Positions 14,296 through 56,921 of a stretch of DNA of 64,000 nt are shown one piece after another. The notes beneath the pieces were generated by a model. That model was not told where the DNA came from. It saw only the letters and a list, made by a program, of their open reading frames with translations, and searched no databases. The stretch is from an uncultured Pseudomonadales bacterium (GTDB lineage: Bacteria > Pseudomonadota > Gammaproteobacteria > Pseudomonadales > Azotimanducaceae), in the NCBI GenBank assembly GCA_958296195.1, contig OY282455.1, forward strand, positions 1,922,001-1,986,000, given 5' to 3'. The translations under genes and the position numbers were made by a program. How positions within the stretch are numbered: the first letter of the stretch is position 1; each line of letters starts with the position of its first letter.

Positions 14296-14417
14296 GGCGG
14301 CGTCGCTTGCCGCCGGCGACTCAATCTATTCGCCTAGCTGAAGGCTGCATCCATACTTGACCTGCCGCCGCCAAGCTCGTCTAATTGTCCCGTCTCCGCT
14401 TTCCGCCAAACCCAACA

Positions 14418-15002
14418 ATGAGCCCTGATCCACTCCCCCCTTTTATTCGAGAGCACTACGAAGTGCATGAGTGTAGGCATGCCTGTGCGATCCTCAAGAG
14501 CGACTTTCCTGATGAGTGGTGTGATGTCATTTCGGTTTTGACCGAGTTTCGATTGAGGAGGAGCTGGATTACGCACCCAGGCGGCAGGAAGTCCAAGGTC
14601 TCAGAGTTTATCGACAATTATTTGCATCAGCGTGGATGGGAGGAGAAGAAGTTTCAGACTCGAGTTGTTGTGGATGACGAAACCAAGAAAACCCCGACGC
14701 ATAAGGTGGATTGCTTTCGGAATCGCGTTGCGCTTGAAATCGAGTGGAACAACAAGGATCCGTTCTATGACCGTGATCTGAACAACTTCAGGCTGTTGTT
14801 CGACCTGAGAGCAATCAGCGTTGGCGTCATCGTCACGCGATGTGACGATCTTCAGACTGTATTCAACGAAAATGGGCGCGGCTCATCCTACGGTGCTTCA
14901 ACTACTCATATGAGCAAGCTGCTGCCGAGAATTGCAGGTGGCGGCGGTGGCTGCCCATTGCTGGTTTTCGGCATCACCAAGAAGTTGTGCCTGGAGGATT
15001 GA
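14418..15002 (+). CDS. BglII/BstYI-family type II restriction endonuclease
   Basis: The roughly 194-residue protein matches the BglII/BstYI restriction enzyme family. The catalytic arrangement is visible as VDCFRNRVALEIEWNNKDP: an Asp, eight residues, Glu, one residue, then a second acidic residue, equal to the D-x8-E-x-Q/E site of this family. It is followed by FYDRDLNNFRLLFD, another family block. Enzymes of this family cut sites with a GATC core (AGATCT, RGATCY); the site here is not known. The methyltransferase gene starts three bases after the stop, giving a standard restriction-modification operon. Confidence 0.85.
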   Translation: MSPDPLPPFIREHYEVHECRHACAILKSDFPDEWCDVISVLTEFRLRRSWITHPGGRKSKVSEFIDNYLHQRGWEEKKFQTRVVVDDETKKTPTHKVDCFRNRVALEIEWNNKDPFYDRDLNNFRLLFDLRAISVGVIVTRCDDLQTVFNENGRGSSYGASTTHMSKLLPRIAGGGGGCPLLVFGITKKLCLED

Positions 15003-15005
15003 CCA

Positions 15006-15659
15006 ATGAGCTTGGGGAATGAGTTTCTTGATGGGATTGGCGGAAGGAAGTTCGCCACGATTCTTGCGGATCCGCCTTGGCGGTTTCACAACAAGACGGG
15101 AAAGATGGCGCCGGAGCACAAGCGTCTATCCCGCTATCGGACCTTGTCCTTTGCGGAAATCGAAGCGCTGCCCGTCGAAGCCGTTGTCGGAGACACTGCG
15201 CATCTCTATCTGTGGGTGCCGAATGCGCTGTTGCCTCAGGGCTTGAATGTGATGGCGCAGTGGGGGTTTCAATACAAAACGAATTTGGTTTGGTACAAGG
15301 TTCGGAAAGACGGCGGCCCAGACAGAAGAGGAGTGGGCTTCTATTTCAGAAACGTCACCGAAATGATCCTATTCGGCGTTAAAGGCAAGAACGCAAGAAC
15401 TTTGCCGCCGGGCAGAAGTCAAGAAAACATCATCAGTTCCAGGAAGAGGGAGCACAGCAGAAAGCCCGACGAGCAATATGGGCTCATTGAGGCTTGCAGC
15501 CCCGGCCCCTATCTTGAACTTTTCGCCCGCGGCCGGCGAAGTAATTGGTTTTCCTGGGGCAACCAATCAGAAGAATACGCGCCCGACTGGGCCACCTACG
15601 CCAACCATTCCCGATCCGCCGCCGCCAATGGGCAAGCCGAGCTTTTGCAGGAGGGGTGA
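15006..15659 (+). CDS. MT-A70 family adenine-specific DNA methyltransferase
   Basis: The 217-residue protein contains motif IV DPPWRF near residue 23 (N6-adenine methyltransferase), then the MT-A70 pattern HLYLWVPNALLPQGLNVMAQWGFQ, NLVWYK, and NVTEMILFGVKG, and a C-terminal ELFARG with W (SAM-binding FxG-like region). It would methylate adenine in the recognition site of the adjacent BglII-type nuclease, protecting host DNA. A three-base gap to the endonuclease gene supports coexpression. The C-terminus after NWFSWGNQ is a family-typical ending followed by ~30 extra residues. Confidence 0.9.
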   Translation: MSLGNEFLDGIGGRKFATILADPPWRFHNKTGKMAPEHKRLSRYRTLSFAEIEALPVEAVVGDTAHLYLWVPNALLPQGLNVMAQWGFQYKTNLVWYKVRKDGGPDRRGVGFYFRNVTEMILFGVKGKNARTLPPGRSQENIISSRKREHSRKPDEQYGLIEACSPGPYLELFARGRRSNWFSWGNQSEEYAPDWATYANHSRSAAANGQAELLQEG

Positions 15660-15750: not shown

Positions 15751-16638
15751 ATGCCTAAGATCACGGAGCTTGCCCTGTCTGGTCGGTTTCTTGTAACGAG
15801 CGAACTCACTCCCCCGAAGGGCGTTGATCTTGGCCCGTTGCTGGAGGCCGCCCGCAATCTCGCGCCCTATGTGGACGCCTTTAACCTGACGGACTCCCAC
15901 AGCGCCCGCATGAGCATGGCGCCCATCGGCGCGGCGCGGCGGCTGTTGGAGGCGGGGGTGGAGCCCATCCTGCAAATGACGGCGCGGGACCGCAACCGCA
16001 TCGCCATCCAAGCGGACCTGCTGGCTGCGGCTTCCCTTGGCGTCTCCAACGTGGTGCTGATGGGCGGGGATGCACCGACCCAAGGCGACCACCCGGACGC
16101 CAAGGGGGTCTTTGACTTGGGTACGGTGGAGATCATCGCCGCGGCGCAGGGGCTGAACGAGGGGCGGGACTTGGCCGGCAAGGCCCTGAAGGGCACGCCG
16201 GATCTATGCGTCGGCGCGGTGGTCAATCCTGGCAGTTCGGACCTTGGCAAGGAACTGGACCGCATGGCCGCCAAGGTGGAGGCCGGTGCCCGCTTCTTCC
16301 AAACCCAGGCGGTGTACGACGTGGCCGCGTTCGAGCGCTTCGCCGAGAACTTGGCGCGTTTTGCAGGGTTGGGCGTGGCGGTCATCGCCGGCGTCATCCC
16401 CATCAAGTCGGTGCGGATGGCCCGCTACCTCAATGAGAACGTACCGGGAATAGACGTGCCGGAGGCCCTGATCGGCGAGATTGCCGAGGCGTCGGACGTG
16501 GCGGCGACCAGCGCCGCCATTGCGGCCCGCACCATTGCTGGGCTTAGGTCGCTTTGCCAGGGGGTGCATCTAATGGCCCTCGGCCAAGAGGCGCTTATTC
16601 CCACCATCGTTGAACAAGCGGGCATTCCCGGCAAGTAG
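15751..16638 (+). CDS. Methylenetetrahydrofolate reductase family protein (MetF-like)
   Basis: The 295-residue TIM-barrel protein has the features of the MetF family: VTSELTPPKGVD near the start, DSHSARMS, QMTARDRNR, VVLMGGDAPTQGDH (folate/flavin region), FFQTQAVYD and VIAGVIPIKS. It belongs to the group of MetF-like proteins often found with one-carbon or corrinoid pathways, and lacks the extra C-terminal zinc domain. It probably reduces methylenetetrahydrofolate or a related pterin, but could act in a methyltransferase system. It stands alone after the restriction-modification cassette. Confidence 0.82.
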   Translation: MPKITELALSGRFLVTSELTPPKGVDLGPLLEAARNLAPYVDAFNLTDSHSARMSMAPIGAARRLLEAGVEPILQMTARDRNRIAIQADLLAAASLGVSNVVLMGGDAPTQGDHPDAKGVFDLGTVEIIAAAQGLNEGRDLAGKALKGTPDLCVGAVVNPGSSDLGKELDRMAAKVEAGARFFQTQAVYDVAAFERFAENLARFAGLGVAVIAGVIPIKSVRMARYLNENVPGIDVPEALIGEIAEASDVAATSAAIAARTIAGLRSLCQGVHLMALGQEALIPTIVEQAGIPGK

Positions 16639-23370: not shown

Positions 23371-24883
23371 TCACATGCCCCAAACTTCGACAGCAACGCC
23401 GTTCTTCGACCGCCGTTGCTCGTGGAACAGCTTGTCCTCCCAAGCCCGGTTCTCCCGTTGGTCGAAGATTACTAAATGCCCGGATTCGGGGGCGCAGCGT
23501 TTCATGTAGCCGGCCGTCTGCTCCACCCCTTTGTCAGTGAGGCCCTCCAGGCTCCGCCCTTCGCGGAGCACCTTGCACTCCACCACGAACTCTTGGTTGC
23601 GCGTCCCTAGGGGCCAGACGATCAGCAGGTCCACCCGGCCCCGGCCCAAGCCGTACTCCCGCTCCATGCGCCCGCCGCCGTTCACCACGCGCTGCAGGAA
23701 AGCCTGCAGCAAGAGCTGCGGCCAGGCCTCCGGGTAGTCGAAGCGGTTGCGCCAATGTTCAGAATGACGGCGGAAGAAGTCTTGGAAGGCGGCCAGCAGC
23801 TTGGCGATGTCGAGGCCGCCGTTGGGGTCCAAGTACCAAGCCCTTTCCTGGTCCAGCGTCTCCTGCGCCACCCAAGCCAGCTCCCGAGGCAGAACCTCCG
23901 CGTAGATTGGGTTGGCGATGCGCACCGGGGCGTCCTTGGCGATCAGGCCCAAGTCTCGGACGTATTCAATGTCGCGCCCGCCCGAGTCCCATTTCTCCGC
24001 GCCACTGAGCATCGGCCCGACCACTCGCCGCACCCGCTCCTCCTTGAGCTTGTCCGCCAACTGGTCCAAGTGGGTCACCCGGCGCAGAATGAGCTCCTCG
24101 CGGGCCGCAAAGATGTCCGCCTCGGACACCGGCCGCGCGAGGTCCCGAACGGCGCCGCTCTTGAAGCAGGTCAGGTCCGCCAGCGCGTTCACCAGCCAGG
24201 GCTGGCCTTGGGTTTGCGCCCACACCGCTTGCAGCACCTCTGGGGCGAAGGCCTGCCCGGTCGCCTCCGTATGCTGGCCTAGCAACGCCGAGGTCTCCTC
24301 CCGCGTGAAGTCCCCCAGCCGCAGTGACTTGGCGGCGATGTTGAACGGGCTTCCCATGGACTCGATGCGGTAGTCGCGCATGTCCCGCAGGCCGCATAGG
24401 ACCACGCATTGCGGAAAGTGCGCCGGCCGCATGGGGTAGCCGGCCCGTAGTTGCTGCAGCACGGAAAGCAGCGAGTCCCCCTGCAGGGTGTCGATCTCGT
24501 CGATCAGCAGCACCAGCGGCTTGGGGGACGCCTCCGCCCAAAGCGTCAGCGCTTCGCCCCAAGCCGCGTCTGGGCCGACCCTTTCAAGAATGCCCGGCCA
24601 GGCGTCCTGCAGGAAGCTGTCGCCCAGCATTGACCGCGCCCCGGAAGCCAGCCCCGCGAGCGGTTTCCACAGTGGCGTACACGCAGTGGTAGCCTTGACC
24701 GTTCAGGAGATCGCGCAGCGCCAGCAGGGCGGAGGTCTTGCCCGTTTGCCGGGGAGCGTGCAGCGTGAAGTACTTTTTGCCATGCACCAGGCCGGGCAGT
24801 TCATTAAGGTCAAACCGCTCCAGTGGCGGGATGTGGTAGTGGTCCTCCGGAACAATGGGACCCGCGGTGTTGAAGGTGCGCAT
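23371..24883 (-). pseudogene. AAA-like ATPase with C-terminal PD-(D/E)xK-type domain, frameshifted
   Basis: Two frames add up to one protein of a common ATPase family. The first (24883 to ~24640) has the start and Walker A (APRQTGKTSAL). The second (open from ~24655 to 23371) has Walker B (LVLLIDEIDTL) and a C-terminal nuclease-like region (REYGLGRGRVDLLIVWP, EFVVECKVL). At the junction the first frame ends in YATVETA and the second can be read back as LASGARSMLGDSFL; the usual helix linking these is missing, so a short deletion of some tens of bases probably caused the shift. A sequencing error alone would not remove that segment. The C-terminal fragment lacks a P-loop, so the gene is likely dead. 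Confidence 0.75.
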
Positions 24884-25320
24884 GGCTCGGCTCCTTTGCG
24901 TGGCGGCGCCCCGGTGCCCGCCGCCAACTAGCAGATCGCTAGTATGACCGCTTTCACCAACCCATGCGCAGGATTGGCGGCGGGATTTGGCCCTCCAATG
25001 CCAAGGTGGTCGAGTTGGGAAGCTCGGCGAATGACGGCTCTACTCGGTCGGCGAGTCCGCAAGATGATTTCGGTGCGAGTGCAGTTCCCGCAGGCACGAC
25101 GGGCCGCATGGTCAATTTCGATTTTGAACTCATTGATTTTAGTGGAAAAAATATCCTGCCTCGCGTTCCGGGGTTGCGGTGGGAGTGGGCGCTTGGTGTT
25201 CGCCTGAGGCGGGCGTCGCCCCCACAAACCCTTGCAAAAAGCGAGTTTCAGCGGGCCTTGGAGCGGCGGTTTCAATCGCCCCATTCACCCTGCAAAATAG
25301 TGCCTTGTTGCACCGAATTC
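24884..25320 (+). other. 437-bp divergent region upstream of dnaA
   Basis: The region separates the broken ATPase gene from dnaA. No coding sequence is supported. The stretch 25108-25160 is distinctly AT-rich compared with its surroundings. I looked for DnaA boxes of the form TTATNCACA on both strands and found none, so I see no evidence for a replication origin here. Confidence 0.4.
25124..25154 (+). promoter_or_regulatory. Possible promoter upstream of dnaA
   Basis: TTGAAC (25124-25129) and AAATAT (25149-25154) lie 19 bases apart in the only AT-rich patch before dnaA. Both hexamers are imperfect, so this is a weak call. Confidence 0.25.
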
Positions 25321-26727
25321 ATGTGGGAGGAAGCTGTGCTTGATTGGGGGACCATTCTGCTTAAGTTGGGGGAGGAAGTGCCTGCCGAAGCCTTCAATCG
25401 CTGCCTTAAGACCTTGCAGGCGTGGGAGGACGATGGAGCGCTGGTGCTGTTTGCGCCGAACGCCTACAACCGAGGGGTAGTTGTGAAGGCGCACCTGCCG
25501 CGCATCCGGGAGCTTCGAGGCGGCCTGGTCAAGGTCCAAGTTGGGGCATCGCCCAAAGAAGAGGCGCTGGGGCCGTTGCGGGCGGGCGCTCCGAGCCGTG
25601 CATCCTCCGTCCCCACGACTAAACTGGCCGCCGCCAAGACATTCGAGATATTCGTTCCGAGCGGTTGCAACAAGGCGGCCTTGAAGTCTGCGCAGGACAT
25701 GGCGGACGGACGGGATTGCGAACCCGGCATACTGGTTCTGCACGGGCCAGTCGGGGTTGGCAAGACCCATTTGCTGTGCGCCATTGGCCACCTTGCCCTG
25801 CAGATGCATCCGAACTGGGTGGTGGAGTGCTGGCGCGCCCACTCGTTCATGGCCTACTTCGGTGGGGCGTTCCGGAAAAGTGCAGCCGAAGGCGGGGCTG
25901 CGGCGGAGAGGTTGCGGCAGTCTCTCCGCGCCATTGACGTGCTGCTGTTTGACGACGCGCATCTGATCGTCCAAGGGAACAAGCCGAGAATGCAGGAGGA
26001 GCTCCGCCGGCTGGTTGACGTCGTTTTGGAGCAAGGGGGACGGATGGTCTTGGCCAGCAAGTTGCATCCAAACGAGTTTCCCCATCATTCGGACGAGGAC
26101 TTGCGGGCGAGACTGGCCAGTTGCCTAAACGTGCGGCTGCATATTCCGGGGCGGGATGCAAGCGCCCGCATCCTTGCGCAAATGGTGGAGAACATGCGTG
26201 CCGGACTGCGCCTAAGACCCGAAATTGTGGAGTGCATCCTAGATGAATCCTCCTCAATGCCGGGATGGGAGGGCAATTGCCGGCAATTGGAGGGTTCGGT
26301 TCGCAGCGTTCTTCAGGCGGCCAAGGCGAACGGTTGGAAAGTGACGAAAAAGCTCGTCAGGGGTGCCCTGCGTGTTTCGCCTGCCGCGCATCGGCCCATT
26401 GCGCTGGACGACATCCACGCCGAAATTGCCCACTACTACCAAGTGTCGAGCGGTGACGTCCGGTCGAAACGGAAAACGCAAGCGCTGGTGCGCGCCCGGC
26501 ACATGGGCATGTACTTGGCGCGGCAACTAACCAACTGCTCCTACGCCGACATCGCCAACGCTTGGGGCAACAGGCACCACACGACGGTGAAAAGCGCCTA
26601 CGACCGCATGGACGCGCAGGTCAAAAAGGATAGGAACGCGGCGCATGAGGCCCGTAGGCTGCAAGTCCGCATCAAGGCGCGGGCCAGCCAGGACAAACCG
26701 CCGCAACTGCTGGACTCAGCCGCCTAG
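25321..26727 (+). CDS. dnaA: DnaA-family replication initiator (no dnaN or recF neighbour)
   Basis: The protein is about 468 residues from ATG 25321. Domain I is visible as DWGTILLKLGEEVPAEAFNRCLKTLQAWEDDGALVLFAPNAY. The AAA+ domain has Walker A GPVGVGKTHLL and Walker B DVLLFDDAHLI. The C-terminal DNA-binding domain has the DnaA pattern RSKRKTQALVRARHMGMYLARQLTN...GNRHHTTVKSA. The last motif differs from the canonical G.RDHTTV..A (His instead of Asp). The gene is not followed by dnaN and recF but by an Lhr helicase, and no DnaA boxes are seen, so it could be the main initiator displaced from the origin or a divergent paralogue. Confidence 0.88.
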   Translation: MWEEAVLDWGTILLKLGEEVPAEAFNRCLKTLQAWEDDGALVLFAPNAYNRGVVVKAHLPRIRELRGGLVKVQVGASPKEEALGPLRAGAPSRASSVPTTKLAAAKTFEIFVPSGCNKAALKSAQDMADGRDCEPGILVLHGPVGVGKTHLLCAIGHLALQMHPNWVVECWRAHSFMAYFGGAFRKSAAEGGAAAERLRQSLRAIDVLLFDDAHLIVQGNKPRMQEELRRLVDVVLEQGGRMVLASKLHPNEFPHHSDEDLRARLASCLNVRLHIPGRDASARILAQMVENMRAGLRLRPEIVECILDESSSMPGWEGNCRQLEGSVRSVLQAAKANGWKVTKKLVRGALRVSPAAHRPIALDDIHAEIAHYYQVSSGDVRSKRKTQALVRARHMGMYLARQLTNCSYADIANAWGNRHHTTVKSAYDRMDAQVKKDRNAAHEARRLQVRIKARASQDKPPQLLDSAA

Positions 26728-45062: not shown

Positions 45063-45278
45063 CATTGGGCTGCATGACAATGTACTCCATCCGCCCCAAT
45101 GCGCAAGTTTGCATTCTGGGCCGGGACGAAAGGGGATCTCAACCGCGCTTGCTCCCCACACGTCGAATTTGGGCATGGTTGGTGGCGTCCAGTGGGACGA
45201 GTGACAGGGTGGCGCCCAGGGTCACTCCTAGCGGATGGGCTATGACTTTCGCTGTCGGATATCGCCTCCGGGGCCTCG

Positions 45279-46083: not shown

Positions 46084-46488
46084 TCAGCGGTCGCCTCCTC
46101 CCTTCCGGCTTGCATCAACTCTGAGCGGTCCATGATGTTGACTCGTATTGGCCTTGCTAGCGGCCCGCTCGCCGGCCGGCAAATCACCCAAGAACGTTTC
46201 TAGCTGGTCAAAGAACAACACCCCGTCCGGGAGGCAAGGGGGGCCGTAAATTAGGTGGCGGCCGTTTGTAGATAGCGGGTAGGCACGGACGTCGTCGCTT
46301 TTTGGGTCAATCAAGACCTCGATTTTCCCCATCAGCCCTTCAACCTGCGGGCGGGTCGCCGTCATGCGGAAGACGGAGCGCTGCAATGGCTCGGCGGACT
46401 GGCATACGGCGCGATGTACCCTTTGCAGGCGGTTCGTGGCTGCGATGTCGTAGGCGATGAGCCAAGGCGTGCGCCGATTTGACGGCAT
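46084..46488 (-). CDS. Divergent second Cas2-like protein
   Basis: The 134-residue protein opens with the Cas2 ferredoxin-like core: PWLIAYDIAATNRLQRVHRAVCQSAEPLQRSVFRM, with the conserved Asp after IAY. The second half (VLIDPKSDDVRAYPLSTNGR) also matches Cas2. It differs from the other cas2 in this locus: ATNR replaces the ADPRR segment after the conserved Asp, and there is a ~40-residue C-terminal tail rich in Lys, Arg and Gly. It starts two bases after the cas1 stop. It may replace or heterodimerise with the other Cas2, or be a non-catalytic paralogue. Confidence 0.75.
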   Translation of the reverse strand: MPSNRRTPWLIAYDIAATNRLQRVHRAVCQSAEPLQRSVFRMTATRPQVEGLMGKIEVLIDPKSDDVRAYPLSTNGRHLIYGPPCLPDGVLFFDQLETFLGDLPAGERAASKANTSQHHGPLRVDASRKGGGDR

Positions 46489-46489
46489 G

Positions 46490-47476
46490 TCATTCGCCCC
46501 TGCCTTCGTGCGGGCAAGTAGTTAGACCGCGGCCCCGCTGCTCCAACTCTCGGGCTGATCGGGCAAGTTGTTGTCGGAATAGACGGCGCAGTGCGCGGCC
46601 AAGGGGGTTGAACCTGCCGTAAAAGTGCCTGCGACCAGCTTTGCCCAACAGCATCCCGTCGTTGGTCTCCCGAAATGCCTCTTTGGTGAGAACGCGGTTG
46701 CGGAACAGGGCCCACACCCATTCGTCAACATGGGGTCGGAATGGTTCGACAATATCGGCTGCTAAGGACTCGCGGCCGTACGCGGGCTCGTGATAAAGGC
46801 CCAGCAGCGGGTCAAGACCGGCGGCATGGCAGGCGAGGGTGGCCTCAAAGTGCAGCAAGGTGTAACCAAGCGACAGGCAGGCGTTCACCGGGTCGCGGGG
46901 AGGTCGCCGGTTGCGGCGGTCAAAACCTAGTGAGGGCGGGAACAGCGCTGTAAATGCCTTAAAGTAAGTCGCGGCGGCCGCCCCTTCAATTCCGCGTAAG
47001 CTAGGGATGTCCAGCCGCGTCCCGTCTTGCACCGTGCGGGCCTGCAGGGCGTCAAGTTGGGCGATGGCGCGGGTAAGTTTGCTCCGTTTGCCCGGGCGTG
47101 TATTCAGCGCCTTTTCCAGCAGACGCCTCTGTGCGTGGACTTTTGCCGAAATCAGATCTAAGGCCCATTGGGTTCTTGCGCGGGGGTCTTGGTAGGCGTC
47201 GAATTGGCCCAGCCGTCGCAAAACATCGTTGTGGGGCCGCCCAACGCATGTTGCGAGGTGGCGGTTTTGCCTTCCGCTCAGCACTAGAATGCCGGCGCCG
47301 GCGTCGGTGATGGCTCCAAGGGCAGAAGTGGAGACTTTCGCCCGCCCACGCAGAACCACCCGTTCGAGTCGAGCGAGGGGAACTGTGCCGCGCCGTCCGG
47401 TTGGTTCGCGAATCTCTATGACGCCATTGGAGACATCTAGCTCAATATCCTTGCGATCGATGTAAAGCGTAGTCAT
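46490..47476 (-). CDS. cas1: CRISPR-associated endonuclease Cas1
   Basis: Cas1 inserts new spacers as a complex with Cas2. The ~328-residue protein starts TTLYIDRKDIELDV and has the catalytic residues: Glu in GIEGAAAATYF, His in GLYHEPAYGRESLAADIVEPFRP and the following acidic position. The basic C-terminal domain is present. The start is given as ATG 47476; ATG 47482 would overlap the cas2 stop as TGATG. It lies between two Cas2-type genes on the same strand. Confidence 0.95.
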   Translation of the reverse strand: MTTLYIDRKDIELDVSNGVIEIREPTGRRGTVPLARLERVVLRGRAKVSTSALGAITDAGAGILVLSGRQNRHLATCVGRPHNDVLRRLGQFDAYQDPRARTQWALDLISAKVHAQRRLLEKALNTRPGKRSKLTRAIAQLDALQARTVQDGTRLDIPSLRGIEGAAAATYFKAFTALFPPSLGFDRRNRRPPRDPVNACLSLGYTLLHFEATLACHAAGLDPLLGLYHEPAYGRESLAADIVEPFRPHVDEWVWALFRNRVLTKEAFRETNDGMLLGKAGRRHFYGRFNPLGRALRRLFRQQLARSARELEQRGRGLTTCPHEGRGE

Positions 47477-47481
47477 GCCCA

Positions 47482-47766
47482 TCACCCAATATATTGAAAA
47501 TCAGGATGCACGGCAGGAGTGGCGGTTCCCAAGAGTACCGACTTGGTTCTCTCCTCAACTTGCAACAGTGCAAAGCGGTCCTTGCCTTCGTCAATGATGG
47601 AGAGCGCCCGCACGGTCAGTTCATGGTGCGCCGCAGATGTCAAAAAGCACTCGAATACTGACTTTTGGCCGCCCGTGGCGTGTTGCCTGACCGCTTGGCG
47701 CAGCCTGTACAAACGCCGTGGGTCGGCTATGTCGTAAGTTGCGATGTATAGTCTAGTCGTGGCCAT
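47482..47766 (-). CDS. cas2: CRISPR-associated protein Cas2
   Basis: This ~94-residue canonical Cas2 has RLYIATYDIADPRRLYRLRQAVRQHATGGQKSVFECFL: the conserved Asp in YDI, the ADPRR turn, and the strand after QKSVFEC. ATG 47766 begins the protein proper; the frame extends upstream without conservation. It is followed by cas1 after five bases. Confidence 0.93.
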   Translation of the reverse strand: MATTRLYIATYDIADPRRLYRLRQAVRQHATGGQKSVFECFLTSAAHHELTVRALSIIDEGKDRFALLQVEERTKSVLLGTATPAVHPDFQYIG

Positions 47767-47841
47767 TTGGCACCTGTGGCGTCCGCAAGCGTTCATGCGG
47801 CGCAGCAGCCTTTCGCCGATTGTCGCTGTAGCCGCCGAATC

Positions 47842-48990
47842 TCAGCCGCCGATGAACTTCATCACTGTCACTTCGCCGCTGAAGCTTAGGTTTTGCTTGT
47901 CTGCCAAGGCACGGGCTAGCAACGGTCTGAGTTGGGCTAGGGCTTGTGAGCGGGGCAATTCCAGCACAGGGCGCATGTCGTGATGACGAGTGTTGGAAAG
48001 ACAACCGTACAGATGGCCGTTGGAGGCAAGTCGCAGCCGGGTGCAAGTGCTGCAGAATGGTGCGCTCTCGTTGGCGCAGAAACCGAAGACGCCCCTGCCC
48101 GGCACCTCAAAGCGCACTGTGGTGGAGTCCCAAGGGGCGTCGGTGCTGGCGTACTCGTAGTGTTGCCCGATGAGCGCTAGGACGTCGTCCATGCCGAGGA
48201 ATTCCTTACGAAACAGATTGCCAGTGCGCAGATGTCCCATGTTCATCAGTTCAATGAAACGCAGTTCGATGCCCTGCTCGAAGCAGTAGTTCAGCATGGG
48301 CAGGATTTGGTCGGCATTGCGGCAGAGCATCGCGACCATGTTGATCTTGACCTTTAGGCCGGCGTCCAACATCCGCTGGACACCCGACAGCACCGTGGCA
48401 AGATCGCCACCGTGTGCGATGTCGCGGAAGGACGCAGCGTCCAAGGTATCCAAGCTGATGTTGACCCGGCGCAGCCCGGCGGCGATGAGTAGGTCGGCCT
48501 TCCGCGCCAGCATTTGGCCGTTGGTGGTGATGCAGACGTCCTTAAAGGGTAGTTTCATGAATGCCGGCAGCAGCTCGTCGAACTTGGGCGACACCAGCGG
48601 TTCGCCGCCGGTGATGTGTAATTTTTCAATGCTGGCCGCCTCAGTCAGCAGGGTCACAGCGTCCCGCATCTCTGTTGCGCTCAACTCGTCCGCTACTGCC
48701 TGCAGCCGCCGACCGTTGGGTACGCAATAGGTGCAGGCGTAATTGCAGGCGGCGGTGAGGCTCAGGCGCAACTTGCGGAAGCGCCGCTTCTGAGCATCGA
48801 CGATCACCGGCAATCGCCCATTCGCATGGCTCTTTTTGGTGTTACGCCCCCGTGCCTTTCGGAGAATGTCCATGTCCACCACCGGTATGGCCGCCGTGTA
48901 TGTGGGCGACACGCCGTCCGAAATCGCGGTCGCACTGGCGGCTTCCGTTTTGATCCGCCTCCCGTTCCTCTTTTTGCCGGCTGTATTCAT
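47842..48990 (-). CDS. MoaA-like radical SAM protein inside the CRISPR locus
   Basis: The ~382-residue protein has a ~75-residue basic N-terminal extension, then a radical SAM core (SLTAACNYACTYCVPNGRRL with CxxxCxxC; ITGGEPLVSP; ITTNG; NISLDTLDAASF), and the second cluster of MoaA-type enzymes (PFCSTCTRLRLASNGHLYGCL) with the C-terminal GG (VMKFIGG). These are features of GTP 3',8-cyclase (MoaA), which starts molybdopterin synthesis. It lies between the CRISPR adaptation genes and the glycine-zipper gene on the same strand. It could serve the molybdenum hydroxylase at 20.6-23.4 kb or have a role in defence. ATG 48990 follows GAGG by eight bases; ATG 48996 is possible. Confidence 0.85.
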   Translation of the reverse strand: MNTAGKKRNGRRIKTEAASATAISDGVSPTYTAAIPVVDMDILRKARGRNTKKSHANGRLPVIVDAQKRRFRKLRLSLTAACNYACTYCVPNGRRLQAVADELSATEMRDAVTLLTEAASIEKLHITGGEPLVSPKFDELLPAFMKLPFKDVCITTNGQMLARKADLLIAAGLRRVNISLDTLDAASFRDIAHGGDLATVLSGVQRMLDAGLKVKINMVAMLCRNADQILPMLNYCFEQGIELRFIELMNMGHLRTGNLFRKEFLGMDDVLALIGQHYEYASTDAPWDSTTVRFEVPGRGVFGFCANESAPFCSTCTRLRLASNGHLYGCLSNTRHHDMRPVLELPRSQALAQLRPLLARALADKQNLSFSGEVTVMKFIGG

Positions 48991-49042
48991 CTGCATAGCC
49001 TCGTTCTTCTTCTGCCGCAAATGCGTTGCAGTGCGTCTTAGA

Positions 49043-49099
49043 GGGCATTTAGGCACGAATGCCGCGGATTCAAGCAAGCCGCAAGGTTGCGGAGGCGGG
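49043..49099. repeat. 3'-flank repeat of the glycine-zipper gene, copy 1
   Basis: About 57 bases downstream of the intact gene match 50729-50787 with few changes. Shared blocks include TTTAGGCACGAATGCCGC, GATTCAAGCAAGC and GCAAGGTTGCGGAG. The copies show that the gene end and its flank were duplicated. Confidence 0.85.
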
Positions 49100-49110
49100 A
49101 AGTGGAGCGT

Positions 49111-50571
49111 TTACTCTGCGGTTTTGGCTAGGCTCTCCACTTGGCGGCGAAAGAGCATGGCCGACGGCGGCGTGACCTTCTGCCGCCGTTTGGCGATTTT
49201 CTTGAACTCTTGATTGAACTTGCGACGCACGAAACGGCGCCCCGGTTCGTTGCGGCCGCTGGTCTCCTTGTACATGCTGCGCAGCCATTCGGCGTCGGCC
49301 GTGTTGCGGACCACGACTATGATCTGTTCCACCTCCCACTCGCTAAGCATGTATTCCAGAGACAGTCTGCGCAGTTCCTTTTCCAGCACCCTAGTCAAAG
49401 CTTCCGCATCGTCCTCGACCATCTCATCGGCGATGCTCTTCGTTAATTTGCCGGCGGCGACCCCGCCGCCCAAGGAGCCTAGAACCCCACCGATGATCCC
49501 GCCTGCCGCTGTACCCACAATGGGTACGGCGGAGCCGATTGCGGCACCGGCAGCGGCACCCCCCATCCACCCTCCCACACCTCCAGCAACGCTGGCGACG
49601 TTGACCGCGCTGCTTTTGGTGAACTGTTGCCAAGAGATCGATTTGTCGAACGCCGCTCGGTAGAAATCCGGCGCACACATAACGGCGGCCGTCACGCCTC
49701 CAGTCACAGCGTTGGAGCGGAACAGCTTGCTGACGTGATTGACCGCCGCTGCGCCATGCACGGACTTGCGTAGAGAGGCTTTGGCGATGCCTTCAACGGC
49801 CTTCTTCCCGATCGAGGTGCGGGCGGCGGCCCGTACGCCTTGGCGAACTGCGGTGGTTCCCACGGCGGCGGCCCTGGTCCGTAGCAGTTGTGCGCTAACT
49901 AAATGCGTGACCAGCGTCGCGGACCCGGTGCAAAGCGCCTCTTGAAACGCCGCCTTGGTGGCTTCAGCATTCTCCAACCCCTGCCAGCGCCCTCGCGCAT
50001 AGCTGATCGCGAAGGAGAGCCCAAAGGCCCCACTGGATACCGCAGCACCGGTCTTGATGTCGAACTTAACCGAGTCAATGTTGCCGGCGCGGGCGATGTT
50101 CCGCGCCTGTCTGAACGTCACCGTTCCCTTCTTTACCAGCTTCTCGGCGCCGGCCGGGTCGGTGTGGCCCGGCACTTGGCCTTTGCTGATGCGCTCCCGC
50201 ATCAGTTCTACACATTGATCGTATTGATCCTTGGGCACTTCCAGCACTTGTCCCGAATAGCGGTACTCGCCGCCTTGCGGTTCGAAGGCGGACCGCATCG
50301 TGGTGGCGGGGTTCTCGTAGTACTTCGACTGTACGCGGACGTCGTTGACCAGCCGGTCCGCGCCGTGCAGATCGTTGGACTGACCGACCACCTTCGCGTC
50401 TTGGCCGCGCAAGCGGTCCGCGAGATTGTTCGCGTCCTCCGCCGCGAAGCCGTGTCCGCCCTTGGTGTGGTACTTGCCGATCTGCGTCCGCTCCAAGGCC
50501 GCCGCGATCTCTGGTGCCACCACCAACAGGGGTGCGTTGTTGCCCTTTCCACTGTTTTTGCGTTTTTTCAT
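49111..50571 (-). CDS. Unidentified glycine-zipper membrane protein in the type III-B locus (candidate effector)
   Basis: I do not recognise a named family. The ~486-residue protein has (1) a basic N-terminus KKRKNSGKGNN; (2) a soluble segment (~25-160) with HTKGGHGFAAEDANNLADRL, VGQSNDLHGADR, YRYSGQVLEVPKDQYDQCVELM; (3) an Ala/Arg-rich helical part; (4) a strongly Gly/Ala-rich zipper region (~325-377: AGGVGGWMGGAAAGAAIGSA, AAGGIIGGVLGSLGGGVAAG) that looks membrane-inserting; and (5) a basic C-terminus ending RRQVESLAKTAE. ATG 50571 follows AAGGAGAA. Glycine zippers occur in pore-forming or membrane-disrupting proteins. A decayed second copy lies immediately upstream. A membrane effector controlled by the type III system is an inference. 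Confidence 0.7.
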   Translation of the reverse strand: MKKRKNSGKGNNAPLLVVAPEIAAALERTQIGKYHTKGGHGFAAEDANNLADRLRGQDAKVVGQSNDLHGADRLVNDVRVQSKYYENPATTMRSAFEPQGGEYRYSGQVLEVPKDQYDQCVELMRERISKGQVPGHTDPAGAEKLVKKGTVTFRQARNIARAGNIDSVKFDIKTGAAVSSGAFGLSFAISYARGRWQGLENAEATKAAFQEALCTGSATLVTHLVSAQLLRTRAAAVGTTAVRQGVRAAARTSIGKKAVEGIAKASLRKSVHGAAAVNHVSKLFRSNAVTGGVTAAVMCAPDFYRAAFDKSISWQQFTKSSAVNVASVAGGVGGWMGGAAAGAAIGSAVPIVGTAAGGIIGGVLGSLGGGVAAGKLTKSIADEMVEDDAEALTRVLEKELRRLSLEYMLSEWEVEQIIVVVRNTADAEWLRSMYKETSGRNEPGRRFVRRKFNQEFKKIAKRRQKVTPPSAMLFRRQVESLAKTAE

Positions 50572-50728
50572 TTTCCAAAGTTCTCCTTGTTTGCTCTCCA
50601 CCATCTTGGCGATTCGGCTACGTCACCCGTGAAGTGGACGGCCTAGGAAGATGGTGAATTTTGACACCCCGCGGGCGGTCAAGGTGGTTTGGCAAGGTTG
50701 CCGTCTCTGCCCTGCGGCCCGTGTTGAG

Positions 50729-50787
50729 GGGTATTTAGGCACGAATGCCGCCGATTCAAGCAAGCTGCAAGGTTGCGGAGTTGGGAA
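50729..50787. repeat. 3'-flank repeat of the glycine-zipper gene, copy 2
   Basis: Second copy of the element at 49043-49099. It sits on the downstream side of the decayed gene remnant, ahead of the intact gene in the minus-strand reading direction. Confidence 0.85.
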
Positions 50788-51448: not shown

Positions 51449-52471
51449 TCAGTCACCCTCCCACTCATCATAGATCACTTTGGCATCTCGTGCCGCCCTG
51501 CCGGGTGGCGGGGTCTCCCACCATCCATTCTTCTCCCAACGGGAGCGGATGTCCTGATATGCCTCCTTTTTGAGCGCCGGGTCTGCTATTTCAGCCCAAG
51601 CCTTGGCGAGCCTTCTGCCTCGTAGCGTTTGTTCCTCGGTGGATGTATGCCCGCTTGACAAGCCAGCAATGGTTTCGTCCACCCAAGCGCAGCTTGGTTC
51701 GGGTTCGACCACGGCCATCGGCTCGAACAAGCCGTAGCCGGAGCGCGTCTTGGCGCCCGCGCCGCGGCTGGACAAAGCGTCAACCAGCATTTGCTCCGCC
51801 AGATCAAGCCACGCAGGGGGACCCTCCAGCACGAACAGAAATCTTCCTTGGACGGCGATTTGGGCGTTGGGCACTGGGCTGTCGAAATCCGTAGCGGGCA
51901 CTTTTCCGTCTTTGCCGTAGTATTCAGGATGATGGGTCGTGACGACTTCGAGCACGAACGGGCGTTGGTCCGAGTTGGGTGTCCACCAAGCATCGTGGAA
52001 GGAGACAAGCCCTGCCAACCCGGCCGGTCGGCCTTCGGTGGCCGGCGCTCCGAAAATTTCGTTGCAGATGGCGTCCCCGTTGTCGGCATTGCGGAATTTT
52101 TCGCGCACATGGGCATTGACGACGCCTTTGACGCTGGACCCCGGGATGTACGGCGCACCGTAACTGTGGCTTATGGCGCAGCCGGTTTCCAACATGCCGC
52201 CGCCGGCCAATCCAGCGAACAGCCGGGTTTTTAGCTGAAGGGTGGTTGATCTAAAGCGCGACTTGTCGGAGGTGGCCTCCCTCCACCGCTTGTAGGCGCC
52301 TCGGTAGAGGTCGCCCATGTCCGTTTTGCACACGCGCTCTATGAGTTCCGTTTTGTTTGCGCCATCCTCATCGTGCATCTTTAAGCCATGCTGAAGCAAC
52401 AAGCCGGGATGGGCATCCGCAGCATCCCTGTAAACTTGGCGCAGACGACTGCGCATTAGCTGTGTCCTCAT
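51449..52471 (-). CDS. cmr6: Type III-B effector subunit Cmr6
   Basis: Cmr6 is a RAMP protein capping the 3' end of the crRNA in the Cmr complex. The ~340-residue product has SHSYGAPYIPGSSVKGVVNAHVREKF (the RAMP strand-loop) and the glycine-rich loop GAGAKTRSGYGLFEP. ATG 52471 overlaps the cmr5 stop by four bases, so a longer frame is rejected. It is the last Cmr subunit gene of the operon. Confidence 0.93.
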   Translation of the reverse strand: MRTQLMRSRLRQVYRDAADAHPGLLLQHGLKMHDEDGANKTELIERVCKTDMGDLYRGAYKRWREATSDKSRFRSTTLQLKTRLFAGLAGGGMLETGCAISHSYGAPYIPGSSVKGVVNAHVREKFRNADNGDAICNEIFGAPATEGRPAGLAGLVSFHDAWWTPNSDQRPFVLEVVTTHHPEYYGKDGKVPATDFDSPVPNAQIAVQGRFLFVLEGPPAWLDLAEQMLVDALSSRGAGAKTRSGYGLFEPMAVVEPEPSCAWVDETIAGLSSGHTSTEEQTLRGRRLAKAWAEIADPALKKEAYQDIRSRWEKNGWWETPPPGRAARDAKVIYDEWEGD

Positions 52472-52887
52472 TGCGAGCCTCCATGCGGCTGCAAGGCGCC
52501 ATTGGCGTTCTGTTCGCTTACGCTTAACACCGCTTGGGCGTAGCGCTTGATCCAACCGCTTGCCTCCAAGGACCGGCGCGTGAGATTAACTGCCTCTTGG
52601 AGGCCGCTTTCGATGACGGCTTCGTGCAGCGCCGGCCCATCCTCTGTGGTTGTGGCCTGGGCGGCGCGGAGCACTGCATTCAAGTCATTGAGTAGAGCGC
52701 GGTGCTCGTCCTTGCCCTTGGCGAGTAGGAATCCCGTCGCTTGGGCAAGTCCAGATTGAAGGATCATCCCCGGCAGTTTGTGCGCCAAGGTGCCGTACTC
52801 CCTCTCTCTTGGACTGCGGCGGTGCGCTGCAACGCGCTCGTAAGCCGCCTTGGCGACTGCGTGGGTACGGGTCTCGGTCATGCTCAT
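52468..52887 (-). CDS. cmr5: Type III-B effector subunit Cmr5
   Basis: Cmr5 is the small, all-helical subunit of the Cmr complex. The ~139-residue product contains AKAAYERVAAHRRSPREREYGTLAHKLPGMILQSGLAQATGFLLAKG, typical of Cmr5. ATG 52887 overlaps the cmr4 stop (ATGA) and follows GGAGG; a second ATG lies six bases on. Neighbouring genes are cmr4 and cmr6. Confidence 0.92.
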   Translation of the reverse strand: MSMTETRTHAVAKAAYERVAAHRRSPREREYGTLAHKLPGMILQSGLAQATGFLLAKGKDEHRALLNDLNAVLRAAQATTTEDGPALHEAVIESGLQEAVNLTRRSLEASGWIKRYAQAVLSVSEQNANGALQPHGGSQ

Positions 52888-53772
52888 GCTTCCTCCGAGG
52901 TGAGAAAACGCACCAGCCCGCGCCCAACGCCGGCCTTGCCGCCAAGTTGCAGCAGCGTGTTGGAATGGGGCATTGCCTTTGCCAGCTCTGCTTCGGACCT
53001 GGAGTCGTCCTTGTTGTTGGAAGCGGAGACCGCAAACAGGCCCCAGAGCACGGCCTCGGCGGGCAGATTCTCCTCGTACCAAAGCGCTCCCTTAAGAACC
53101 GTTCCTGTGTTTTGATCTATGGCGATGCGGGCGCGAACCTCGGTGGCGGTTTCCGAAAGGAAATCCATTATTTCGTCCGGCAGAAGCGTAAATCGCTTAA
53201 CGAATTCACTTTGCGCCTCGGAATCGCCGGGATGCACCGCTTGGGCGATGCATTTTGCCCACTCCGTTAGCGAGGCATCCTCCCGTGCCGTCAAATCGAG
53301 GTCCTCCAGCACGAGTTTGCGCCTATTCTCTTTAGCAATGCAGTTGATGGACTCGGGCGGGACCAGCGCCTCCTCTGAAGTGAGCTTGGATGGCGTCCTT
53401 GGTGCGGATGCGCCGGAACGCTTCAGGTCGCGGGCGTAACGGTGCAGAATGAAGGGTGCGGTGACGTAGCTGACAATGCCCGCCAGGCAGCGCACCGGCA
53501 AGGCCAGCAGATGGGCATCCCCAATCGCCAAGGCTCCAGCGAAGGAGTTCGAGTCGCCGCTGCCGAACTCAGGGGCCGAACAATGTCCTTTCATCGTTCG
53601 GGTGACTGATGGCGACCTGCTGCCGCAGCACCCCGCGCAGAGATGATCCCGGAACGATGGGGAGCTTCGTGGCCCGGGCGCGAGCGATCGGCAAGTCCAC
53701 CACGCCTACGGACTGGCCGGTTCCGCAGTGCAGAGCGGAGAGGGCATGGAGATGAAACAGTCTTGCTTGCAT
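52884..53772 (-). CDS. cmr4: Type III-B backbone subunit Cmr4, requiring a +1 frameshift at CCC-TGA
   Basis: Cmr4 is the repeated backbone RAMP that cuts target RNA every six bases. The first frame (53772-53569) gives FHLHALSALHCGTGQSVGVVDLPIARA...GSSLRGVLRQQV...DERTLFGP and stops at TGA 53571-53569. The second frame continues exactly there as EFGSGDSNSFAGALAIGDAHLLALPVR to the stop at 52884. Joined by a +1 shift the product is ~295 residues, the normal Cmr4 length with nothing missing. The last codon before the stop is CCC (53574-53572), and sliding one base gives CCT, also proline. This can be programmed frameshifting or a one-base insertion; the sequence alone does not decide. Unshifted, the product would be a 67-residue fragment. 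Confidence 0.85.
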
Positions 53773-53796: not shown

Positions 53797-55107
53797 TTAA
53801 CGGGCTGTAATTGGTGGTTTCCATGAACTGGGCAAAGCAAGCCCGAAACCATCGCGACGGCGCAGGTCGCTGACGCTGGCCAGCCACAGCGCCTTCAAGT
53901 CGCTGGCGTCCACATTGCCAAGAATTCGGAACCAATAGACTGTGCCGGCTGGGGCCAACTTGCGGGTTTGTCGAGGCCGCCGCTCAGCGAGATTCCAGCC
54001 GGAATGCGGCTGCCAACGCTCCACCGCTGCGGCGCACAGGCGCAGCCGCAGCCCTGACAGACCGGGCGGATTGCCGGTCAGGTCGGCATCAAGCCAGCCG
54101 GGGCGATACCCGTTGGAGAAAATGGCCGGGGTCAGCAAGGTCAAGCAGAGGCCGCCGGTATGAGCGATTTCCTCCAGCCAATGCTGCGGCGGCACTGGCC
54201 AAATCCGTTCTGGTTCCGGTTGCAAGGCCGCTAGGCGGCGTTCGCCCCCGAGATGCACTAAACCCTTGTCCAAGGCTTCGCTGCAATGCGCCAAAAGACG
54301 GAAGCCGTTCGCTGCCGTCTTCCAGCGCTCTTTGACGGGAAGGTCCCCGTTCTCCGTTGCGCTTGGTGCGTTGAGATCAAGTCCCTCGGTCTGAAAGAGA
54401 TGCCCGGCCTCGGCGGTTCCGGTTTTCGGGTTGATTGCCACATGGGTGCGACGGTCTCCCGCCGGCGGTGACCAGCCATTCCTGCATAGCTGCGCATGGG
54501 AAACTGCCTGCCCCTGGCGAAAATTCAGCAAATCGTCCCATACCCACCAAGTCGGACCGTTGCCGGGCTTGCCGATTTCAGCCTCAGCCAACCGCACTGG
54601 CAGCAGGCCGTCGGGCAGGTCGGCGTCGCAGCCGGCCTCGAATTCACGCGGTTCGATACGCTGTACGTTCGGCCCCGATGCGCCGTGACCGAAGTACAGT
54701 GCGTCCGCGGGCTTCGGTGCCAAGATTTGGCTGTCTCCCTTCACCAGCAGAGGCCCGGCCACATTCAGTTCCATGGCCTCTTGGAATTTTTGCTTAAGCC
54801 CTAGCCCCGAAGGCTCGCCCGAGGTCCGCGCCCATGCCGTGCGCAGGCACCCCGCCACGGTCGAAGGCGGTGGAAGGCGAGCTGGATCCACGATGGACAG
54901 ATCGTCAAAAGGACGCCCGGAACGAACTATGATGGGCGCAAGCGGGTCCAAGCTCAAAACCCTGCTGGGGCCGTGTTGTTCCGGTAGGCTCGTCGAATCA
55001 GCTTCGCTTTTCAGGCTCTCCCGCCCTGTTTGCGCTCTGGCTCGTTTGCGGTAATTGGGCCGCTGGTTCTTCCGCTTGCCCCGTCTGTTTTTCTTGGGCG
55101 GGCTCAT
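53797..55107 (-). CDS. cmr3: Type III-B effector subunit Cmr3
   Basis: Cmr3 is the RAMP subunit next to Cas10 that holds the crRNA 5' tag. The ~436-residue product opens with a basic tail (PPKKNRRGKRKNQRPNYRKR) followed by LSLDPLAPIIVRSGRPFDD and LPPPSTVAGCLRTAW, typical of Cmr3. HVAINPKTGTAEAGHLFQTEGLDL and the C-terminal LGNVDASDLKALWLASVSDLRRRDGFGLALP fit. ATG 55107 overlaps the cas10 stop by four bases. Confidence 0.9.
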   Translation of the reverse strand: MSPPKKNRRGKRKNQRPNYRKRARAQTGRESLKSEADSTSLPEQHGPSRVLSLDPLAPIIVRSGRPFDDLSIVDPARLPPPSTVAGCLRTAWARTSGEPSGLGLKQKFQEAMELNVAGPLLVKGDSQILAPKPADALYFGHGASGPNVQRIEPREFEAGCDADLPDGLLPVRLAEAEIGKPGNGPTWWVWDDLLNFRQGQAVSHAQLCRNGWSPPAGDRRTHVAINPKTGTAEAGHLFQTEGLDLNAPSATENGDLPVKERWKTAANGFRLLAHCSEALDKGLVHLGGERRLAALQPEPERIWPVPPQHWLEEIAHTGGLCLTLLTPAIFSNGYRPGWLDADLTGNPPGLSGLRLRLCAAAVERWQPHSGWNLAERRPRQTRKLAPAGTVYWFRILGNVDASDLKALWLASVSDLRRRDGFGLALPSSWKPPITAR

Positions 55108-56921
55108 GTGCGCTCTCCGATGTCGCTGGCGGTTCGGGCGGAAAGCCAACGTGCAATGATCAGCGTGTCGGCTAGATCTCTAAGTGATTGGACTTGCGCC
55201 CGCTGCGCGACTAATTCTTGCAGTTCTTTGGGAACTTGGCCGCTGCCGCCTTTAGTGCGAGCCCGATCAAGCATGCGTCCCACTTCCGCCTTCCGCATGT
55301 CCTGCGCCGTGGAGCCGTCGTCTTTACGGAGCCAAGCAAGGCGCAGATCGATGTCCCGCAGATCATAGGCTGCACGGGTCGGCAGCTCGCCGTTTCGGAA
55401 CGCAGCAGTCATCTGATCAAGCGCTTTGAACGCCTCGTCATCGCTCCACCGATTGCGCCAGCACAGTTCCGCTCCCGAGCGAATGCCGAGTGCGATGGCC
55501 AAGGCGTTGCGTTGCGCGTCGGTAGAGTCTCCCTTCGCCAAGTGTTCCGCCCGTTCCGCACGGTCGCGCAGTGCGCCCAACGGCTCCATGAAATGGCCGA
55601 CGCCTAAACCGACGGACAGTGTCGGGCGGTCCTCATGCAAAATATTCATTTCCCCGGCGATTTCGCTCAGCGAATTCTCAAATTTTTCCGCCAACGCCTT
55701 TGAGCAGCTCACCGCCTGCGCCAGCGGCATGAGCGCAAGAACGTCATCGCCGCCGGCGTACACGGCATGGCCCCGATGTTTGCGGACGACTTCAGGCACA
55801 TGCAATGCGAACTCGTGCAATGCGCGGGAAATTTGCCGAGCGCGGTCCACGCTGTCCGCACGGGAAAGAAATGCCCCCATGCGGTCGCCATCGGCCTTCA
55901 GGATGGCGGCATAGGGTACGGGCTTGCCCACTGACTTGCCGGCATCCGTCTGCTCCTGCACGATTTGCTTGATGCACTGTCGAAGGCCGGAAAGCGCTTC
56001 CTTTTCGGATGGATCGCTTGCCTGTGAAAGCGCGTTTCCCAGCCTGAATTCATAGAGCATCTGCGCGTCGAACGGCAATGCGCTGTAGATTCCCCCGTTG
56101 CCGCTGGTGCGCGTGGCGAGTTCCAAGGGAACCAGCGGCTCGTAGGCGGCACGAAGGCGTTGCTGCTGCACTGCACTGAGTTGCTCGATCCACGAATCTG
56201 CGGCAATGCGGGAATAGGCGGTGAATTGCTCCGATTGGCCGGCTAGGCGCTTGGTCACGCCGAGCGCATCAAGCTGTTCGCCTTTGGACAGCCGGAGCTT
56301 GCGCCGGGCTCGCTCGGTAGCCGGCCATTTCGGCAATACGGTTTCCAATGCGCCGTCAAGAGAGGATTTCGGCAGCCCTTCCACGACGAGCTCCTCGCAA
56401 GCCTGGAAGTTTCGGGTGGCCTTTCTGGCACCTAATATCTCACGAACCCGCCTGCTGGCTTGCGCGTAGTCATCCGCGACGGCGGCAAACGACACCCAAG
56501 CTGCGAACCCTTCCAAGATGTCGCTGACTTGCGCCTGCCAGACTTCTTCCCGCACGGTCCTTCCCAGTTTGCCGCGCGCCTGATCCCCCAGCTCCGCCAA
56601 CCGCGAGACAGCAGAGGCTTTGGCCTCGTCGCAGAGCGAGCGCACGGCTGCGGCGTCAGGCAAGCTAACTTCGACGCGCAGGATATTCGCAATGTTGGCA
56701 GCGTCGGCTGGCCCATTTTGCGGTGCCAAGTCTTCTTTGGGGTTTTCGAGGTGCGGAAAAATCAAGCAGCCTGGATGCCGGTCATGGAGTTTTTTGGCAG
56801 CGGCTCGCACTGCTTCCGACAGAAGGTAGGAGCCACACCAAAGATCGCGAGTGCGTCGGGCGGCCCCGATCAAGCTCTGCACCGGCCCTAGGGACAGGGT
56901 GACGAGGAAGCGTTCCATCAC
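55104..56921 (-). CDS. cas10: Type III-B Cas10 (Cmr2) with GGDD cyclase motif, no HD domain
   Basis: Cas10 is the large subunit that makes cyclic oligoadenylates on target RNA binding. The 605-residue protein has HAVYAGGDDVLALMP with the GGDD palm motif (~390-393) and PYAAILKADGDRMGAFLSRAD in the first palm. It begins at once with FLVTLSLGPVQSLIGAARRTRDLWCGSYLLSE, which in longer Cmr2 proteins follows the ~200-residue N-terminal HD nuclease. The HD domain is thus absent, not degenerate. A cleft-binding helical part and a C-terminal domain follow. The start (ATG 56921 or 56918) overlaps the cmr1 stop. Confidence 0.93.
   Translation of the reverse strand: MMERFLVTLSLGPVQSLIGAARRTRDLWCGSYLLSEAVRAAAKKLHDRHPGCLIFPHLENPKEDLAPQNGPADAANIANILRVEVSLPDAAAVRSLCDEAKASAVSRLAELGDQARGKLGRTVREEVWQAQVSDILEGFAAWVSFAAVADDYAQASRRVREILGARKATRNFQACEELVVEGLPKSSLDGALETVLPKWPATERARRKLRLSKGEQLDALGVTKRLAGQSEQFTAYSRIAADSWIEQLSAVQQQRLRAAYEPLVPLELATRTSGNGGIYSALPFDAQMLYEFRLGNALSQASDPSEKEALSGLRQCIKQIVQEQTDAGKSVGKPVPYAAILKADGDRMGAFLSRADSVDRARQISRALHEFALHVPEVVRKHRGHAVYAGGDDVLALMPLAQAVSCSKALAEKFENSLSEIAGEMNILHEDRPTLSVGLGVGHFMEPLGALRDRAERAEHLAKGDSTDAQRNALAIALGIRSGAELCWRNRWSDDEAFKALDQMTAAFRNGELPTRAAYDLRDIDLRLAWLRKDDGSTAQDMRKAEVGRMLDRARTKGGSGQVPKELQELVAQRAQVQSLRDLADTLIIARWLSARTASDIGERT

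What the first reader, a model, noticed from the sequence alone, without database searches (positions are those of the whole stretch)
53560..53600. cmr4 is split exactly at a CCC-TGA +1 frameshift site
The first cmr4 frame ends CCC TGA and the second continues directly after the intervening base with no lost residue; the joined protein has normal Cmr4 length. Proline tRNA can slip from CCC to CCT, and TGA in the A site favours this. CCC-TGA is a known programmed +1 frameshift site (described in Listeria phage PSA structural genes), and the same logic drives prfB. If programmed, abundance of the main target-RNA-cleaving subunit would be set by frameshifting, which I do not know to be described for Cmr4. 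The alternative is an inactivating one-base insertion or sequencing error in a run of four C.
Basis: partly seen in the sequence, partly recalled or inferred. Interest (0 to 1): 0.8.

Follow-up and report, generated by a model that had tools for sequence, protein, structure and literature searches.

The report
One-base break in a CRISPR gene
A CRISPR gene, cmr4, is interrupted by a one-base frame change at a codon where ribosomes can slip, but the relatives examined lack the break, so it is probably an ordinary mutation or sequence error, not a control switch.

Summary
On the minus strand cmr4 reads 67 codons to GGC CCC TGA (stop 53569-53571) and continues one base later; read across, it is a 295-residue Cmr4 (TIGR02580, 215 bits, cut-off 87). 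A programmed +1 shift is not supported. Seven close relatives read through this place uninterrupted, as do hits in 49 further genomes of wider searches; one of those, G424, changes frame a few codons later. The site lacks visible aids: no Shine-Dalgarno-like hexamer as close upstream as in this genome's prfB, no unusual downstream fold (z = +0.6). The genome's RF2 is of the efficient Ala type. Elsewhere in this genome a perfect 47-bp tandem duplication and losses of tens to 200 nt break frames that are open in a same-genus genome. The part of cmr4 after the break is as conserved as among relatives, so the lesion is recent or a consensus error. Against chance: CCC-TGA falls exactly at the shift in only about 1 in 1,000 to 1 in 2,800 simulated insertions. 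Some unprogrammed slippage could leak full-length Cmr4. No relative closer than about 67% was found, so a young site is not excluded. Ordinary; low interest.

The parts
53572..53772 (-). first cmr4 frame, 67 codons, holds Asp26
53569..53574 (-). CCC TGA, where the frame changes by +1
52884..53570 (-). rest of cmr4 in the +1 frame; its stop overlaps the cmr5 start (ATGA)
52468..52887 (-). cmr5, open frame
   Evidence: TIGR01881 40.6 bits, cut-off 27.9 (scanned from two codons further upstream)
51449..52438 (-). cmr6, open frame (start taken at 52438 for the scan; the ORF can start earlier)
   Evidence: TIGR01898 80.1 bits, cut-off 51.1
53797..55149 (-). cmr3-like, open frame
   Evidence: TIGR01888 84.8 bits, under its cut-off of 100.4; best stretch covers profile 199-342 of 346
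55104..56921 (-). cas10/cmr2, open frame, with GGDD
   Evidence: TIGR02577 163.9 bits
56918..58147 (-). cmr1, open frame
   Evidence: TIGR01894 41.3 bits
58246..59502 (-). TIGR02221 family CRISPR-associated protein
   Evidence: 133.7 bits
59480..60943 (-). Cas_NE0113 family protein
   Evidence: PF09623 153.6 bits
60642..61730 (-). cas6-like
   Evidence: PF10040 56.9 bits
45266..45805 (.). CRISPR array, 8 copies at 69-71 nt spacing, the copy at 45266 diverged
46084..47796 (-). cas2, cas1, cas2

Best explanation
cmr4 of this type III-B CRISPR locus carries a recent, unprogrammed one-base lesion (net +1) in or next to the CCCC run at its codon 67. It is either a real indel in this strain (about 53%) or a consensus error (about 35%). 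As deposited, the gene makes a 67-residue stub that holds the catalytic loop and lacks most of the protein, and stopping early would probably also reduce translation of cmr5, whose start overlaps the cmr4 stop. If the base is real in the cell, the stop happens to sit behind an intrinsically slippery proline codon, so a small unprogrammed leak of full-length Cmr4 is plausible. Shown: the frame change, uninterrupted relatives, open neighbouring cmr genes, undiminished conservation downstream. Inferred: recent origin, polar effect, leak, and the split between mutation and error.
For: Seven close relatives are uninterrupted here: Chromatium okenii, an Acidobacteria MAG, Thiohalocapsa ML1, Allochromatium vinosum and A. 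tepidum plasmids, G210, G226. In the wider searches a hit crosses residue 67 in one frame without a stop in the 9 other matching genomes of the family (G210 and G226 among them, 206 searched), in the 28 other matching genomes of the class sample (369 searched; G351 by a 22-bit hit only), and in the 14 other genomes above the TIGR02580 cut-off of the phylum sample (398 searched). G424 changes frame between residues 74 and 78, in a G run, in the opposite sense and without a stop there, which looks like an accident of the same kind. Identity to six relatives after the site is 57-60%, as among those relatives (53-61%, apart from three Chromatium/Allochromatium pairs at 69-88%), so there is no sign of decay. 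Against G001 (same genus), a perfect 47-bp tandem duplication (L014), a loss of about 41-44 nt (window 24.65 kb) and one of about 194 nt (L015) break frames within about 82 kb of compared sequence. Antonov et al. 2013 (one section read) expect BLASTp-validated singleton frame transitions to be sequencing errors rather than indels.
Against: CCC-TGA exactly at the shift arises in only 0.04-0.1% of simulated insertions, so chance has to be invoked. Single-base breaks look rare: among 49 of the 61 ORFs given to Pfam (9 without any match) I saw no other neighbouring pair sharing one family. That control is insensitive, though: it would not have shown the broken ATPase gene at 24.65 kb. One further one-base difference from G001 lies in a C run near a gene end (L014). 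No relative closer than about 67% was found, so a young lineage-specific site cannot be excluded.
Confidence: 0.88

Rival explanations
1. Programmed +1 frameshifting at CCC_UGA sets how much Cmr4 is made.
For: The site is identical to documented +1 shift sites (CCC_UGA in tsh of three Listeria phages; pheL in E. coli K-12, 15%; passages of PMC5009743; 52% estimated for pheL in a legend of PMC5373646). A tRNA-Pro with anticodon GGG is present, which can pair with CCC and CCU (recalled). This genome's prfB carries the classical +1 site. The frame after the site is as conserved as in relatives. Chance seldom places CCC-TGA at the shift.
Against: Absent in the relatives examined. The nearest SD-like hexamer (AAAGGA) ends 11 nt before the CCC, against 3 nt in this genome's prfB. 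The downstream 106 nt fold no better than shuffles (z = 0.60, 141 of 200 at least as stable; pseudoknots are not covered). RF2 is Ala-type; in E. coli no shifted PheL was seen with Ala-type RF2, but the legend says that no PheL product at all was seen in those strains, so this is weak; CCC_UGA shifted 1.9% in Salmonella. CCC before TGA is about as common as expected at ORF ends here, 3 against 3.8, small numbers. Cmr4 is a multi-copy backbone subunit (recalled), so a bottleneck there is an odd design.
Confidence: 0.06
2. Two separate proteins: the stub and a 236-aa piece started by re-initiation at the ATG at 53592-53594.
For: That ATG is in the second frame, with 20 nt between it and the first frame's stop; the piece alone scores 142 bits for Cmr4.
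Against: I see no Shine-Dalgarno-like sequence just before it (by eye), its first residues would not be Cmr4 sequence, and the relatives are not split here.
Confidence: 0.03

Closest known systems
Singleton frame transitions in bacterial genomes (GeneTack survey, PMC3711429) and frameshifted cas1/cas2 genes in Sulfolobales (passage of PMC7694759)
   Same: One genome carries a frame change in a gene that is open in relatives.
   Different: The stop here happens to follow a slippery proline codon.
CCC_UGA +1 frameshifting in tsh of Listeria phages PSA, A118, A500
   Same: Same codon and stop.
   Different: There it is shared by three phages, preceded by AAA, and gives a second product; here it is seen in one genome and would be needed for any full-length protein.
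pheL of E. coli K-12, incidental +1 shifting at CCC_UGA
   Same: Same codon and stop; unprogrammed leak.
   Different: pheL shifting was reported with the weak Thr246 RF2 of K-12; this genome has the Ala form, and the codon before CCC is Gly, not Phe.
prfB +1 frameshift
   Same: +1 change at a TGA.
   Different: prfB of this genome has an SD-like element 3 nt upstream and CTT TGA C; cmr4 has CCC TGA G and no such element.

Membership tests
Cmr4 (type III-B RAMP) | Match to the family profile | tested here: met
   TIGR02580, 215.1 bits read across, cut-off 87; pieces 65.9 and 142.4 bits
Cmr4 (type III-B RAMP) | Conserved Asp26 needed for target RNA cleavage | tested here: met
   Residue 26 is Asp; role from a passage of PMC5576922
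Cmr4 (type III-B RAMP) | One uninterrupted frame | tested here: not met
Cmr4 (type III-B RAMP) | Lies in a cmr operon | tested here: met
   cmr1, cas10, cmr3-like, cmr5, cmr6 open around it
Programmed +1 frameshift | Slippery codon followed by a stop, same protein continued in +1 | tested here: met
   CCC TGA
Programmed +1 frameshift | Site and both frames conserved among relatives | tested here: not met
   none closer than about 67% identity
Programmed +1 frameshift | Stimulating element (close SD-like sequence or downstream structure) | tested here: not met
   pseudoknots and nascent-peptide effects were not testable
Programmed +1 frameshift | Measured shifting in the cell | not testable with these tools
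   needs a reporter or mass spectrometry
Sequencing or consensus error | Reads disagree with the consensus | not testable with these tools
   no reads held

The most novel reading that the evidence does not exclude
A young, lineage-specific programmed (or selectively retained) +1 frameshift at CCC_UGA throttles the target-cleaving backbone subunit of a type III-B CRISPR complex, tying its supply to RF2 and proline tRNA.
Probability: 0.06. Interest if true: 0.7.

Novelty: already known. Interest (0 to 1): 0.12.

Why it matters
If programmed, it would be, as far as I know, the first recoding control of a CRISPR effector. Searches of the open-access library that paired frameshift words with Cmr4 or cas-gene words listed 0, 5 and 4 papers; in passages of two of the five the frameshifts were about other things, the rest I saw as listings only. 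As it stands, the case shows that a slippery motif at a break is not evidence of programming without conservation, and that such a break in a defence gene may still leak some product.

Tried and rejected
A de novo coding-frame scan of 464 kb gave 13 transitions, most of which look like ordinary gene junctions by their start positions or, for some of the five translated, by their translations; its planted control recovered only 26 of 151 insertions, so I did not use it for a rate and turned to homology with G001. The first homology pass also counted ORFs on the opposite strand; the filtered pass is. Its candidate at L014:11298, a one-base difference in a C run near a gene end, was left undecided; L023 looks antisense and L027 probably lies between genes, and neither is counted as a broken gene. 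Viral contigs gave no relative. My motif pattern for reading codons caught 9 of the 56 loci scanned, so the wider statement about relatives rests on the one-frame hits listed. In one search my search for G226 failed; it was read and is not in the identity table. Of 50 plasmid records with a match, 2 were opened. tRNA anticodons were read for 30 of 46 tRNA loci. No structure model was made, since it would not decide the question. A paper search on CCCTGA listed nothing on bacterial cas genes with that motif among the 20 shown. Papers: PMC5009743, PMC5373646, PMC5576922 and PMC7694759, passages only; PMC3711429, abstract, passages and one section; others as listings only.

Full report
On the minus strand cmr4 starts at 53772 and reads 67 codons to CCC TGA (stop 53569-53571); the same protein continues one base on, to a stop at 52884-52886 that overlaps the cmr5 start. 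Read across, it is 295 residues whose best family match is cas_RAMP_Cmr4 at 215.1 bits (cut-off 87); the pieces score 65.9 and 142.4 bits. Residue 26 is the Asp that a passage of PMC5576922 names as needed for target RNA cleavage. The neighbouring cmr1, cas10, cmr5 and cmr6 genes are open and above their family cut-offs; the cmr3-like gene is open and below its cut-off.

Relatives decide most of the case. The closest found are C. okenii, an Acidobacteria MAG and Thiohalocapsa ML1, A. vinosum and A. tepidum plasmids, and G210 and G226. These seven read through LFGP and on in one frame, with the codons CCT-AAG, CCC-CGT, CCG-AAA, CCC-CGA, CCC-CGC, CCA-AGC and CCC-GAG in that order. In the wider searches a hit crosses residue 67 in one frame without a stop in the 9 other matching genomes of the family, G210 and G226 included (10 of 206 with a match, own genome included), the 28 other matching genomes of the class sample (29 of 369; G351 only by a 22-bit hit), and the 14 other genomes above cut-off in the phylum sample (15 of 398). 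That makes 49 genomes beyond the seven. One of them, G424, changes frame between residues 74 and 78, in a G run, in the opposite sense and with no stop there. Most of the hits are only 33-39% identical, so they test the family, not the immediate kin.

The part after the break is not decaying. The window protein is 57-60% identical to six relatives after the site, and those are 53-61% identical to each other apart from three Chromatium/Allochromatium pairs at 69-88%; before the site the values are 78-82% and 70-81%, apart from the A. vinosum/A. tepidum pair at 96% (G226 is not in that table). So the break is young or not real, or the protein is still made.

Could it be programmed? For: CCC_UGA is a documented +1 site (passages of PMC5009743), a tRNA-Pro with anticodon GGG exists, prfB in this genome has the classical GGGGGTATCTTTGAC site, and chance puts CCC-TGA exactly at the shift in only 11 of 11,448 or 410 of 1,130,130 simulated insertions. 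Against: no conservation in the relatives found; no SD-like element as close as in prfB; downstream folding no better than 200 shuffles (z = 0.60). Weaker points against: CCC before TGA is about as common as expected at ORF ends here, 3 seen and 3.8 expected among 186 TGA ends; and RF2 is of the Ala type (RASGAGGQ). In E. coli no shifted PheL was seen with Ala-type RF2, but the legend adds that no PheL product of any kind was seen in those strains, so that comparison is limited. The review says that in half of the 19 E. coli K-12 genes ending in CCC_UGA shifting exceeds 1%, and that the figure for the pheL site is 15% in E. coli K-12 and 1.9% in Salmonella; so a small leak is plausible without programming.

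Mutation or error? Compared with 800 kb of G001, about 82 kb of the 464 kb examined from this genome could be checked at 40% identity or more. Seven candidate rows were listed. Two concern one ATPase-like gene in the window (23374-24886, loss of about 41-44 nt); one is a perfect 47-bp tandem duplication (L014), one a loss of about 194 nt (L015), one a 77-nt difference that probably lies between genes (L027), one a one-base difference in a C run near a gene end (L014), and one an apparent antisense ORF (L023). In the reverse comparison, over about 101 kb of G001, four rows were listed: three concern the same L014 and L015 places and one is another place in G001, not resolved. So frame-breaking changes do occur in this genome. 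Single-base breaks look rarer: Pfam on 49 of 61 window ORFs showed no other split family, although this control would have missed the ATPase gene. I lean to a real indel but cannot exclude a consensus error; Antonov et al. expect validated singletons to be sequencing errors.

Verdict: most likely an ordinary one-base break of cmr4 at a slippery codon.

Noticed in passing
47845-49077 (-) and 49114-50604 (-): A MoaA-like radical SAM protein and a 497-aa protein without a Pfam match lie between cas1/cas2 and the cmr operon; A. vinosum and A. tepidum plasmids carry radical SAM and EcsC genes beside their Cmr operons.
   Followed up: no
49013-49101 and 50699-50787: Two 89-nt direct repeats, 80% alike, 1,686 nt apart, lie on either side of the 497-aa gene.
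   Followed up: no
46087-46488 and 47485-47796 (-): Two cas2 genes flank one cas1.
   Followed up: no
23374-24886 (-): A gene with an ATPase-like start and a weak PDDEXK_9 match is broken by a loss of about 41-44 nt relative to G001.
   Followed up: partly
24964-26724 (+): A 587-aa DnaA-like protein; whether it is the only DnaA of the genome was not checked.
   Followed up: no
L014, about 16351-16446: A perfect 47-bp tandem duplication breaks a gene that is open in G001.
   Followed up: partly
L067, about 5890-5900: G424's cmr4-like gene changes frame by one base in a G run a few codons after the position of the window's break.
   Followed up: partly
14385-15656 (+): A BglII-type endonuclease gene next to an MT-A70 methylase gene.
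   Followed up: no
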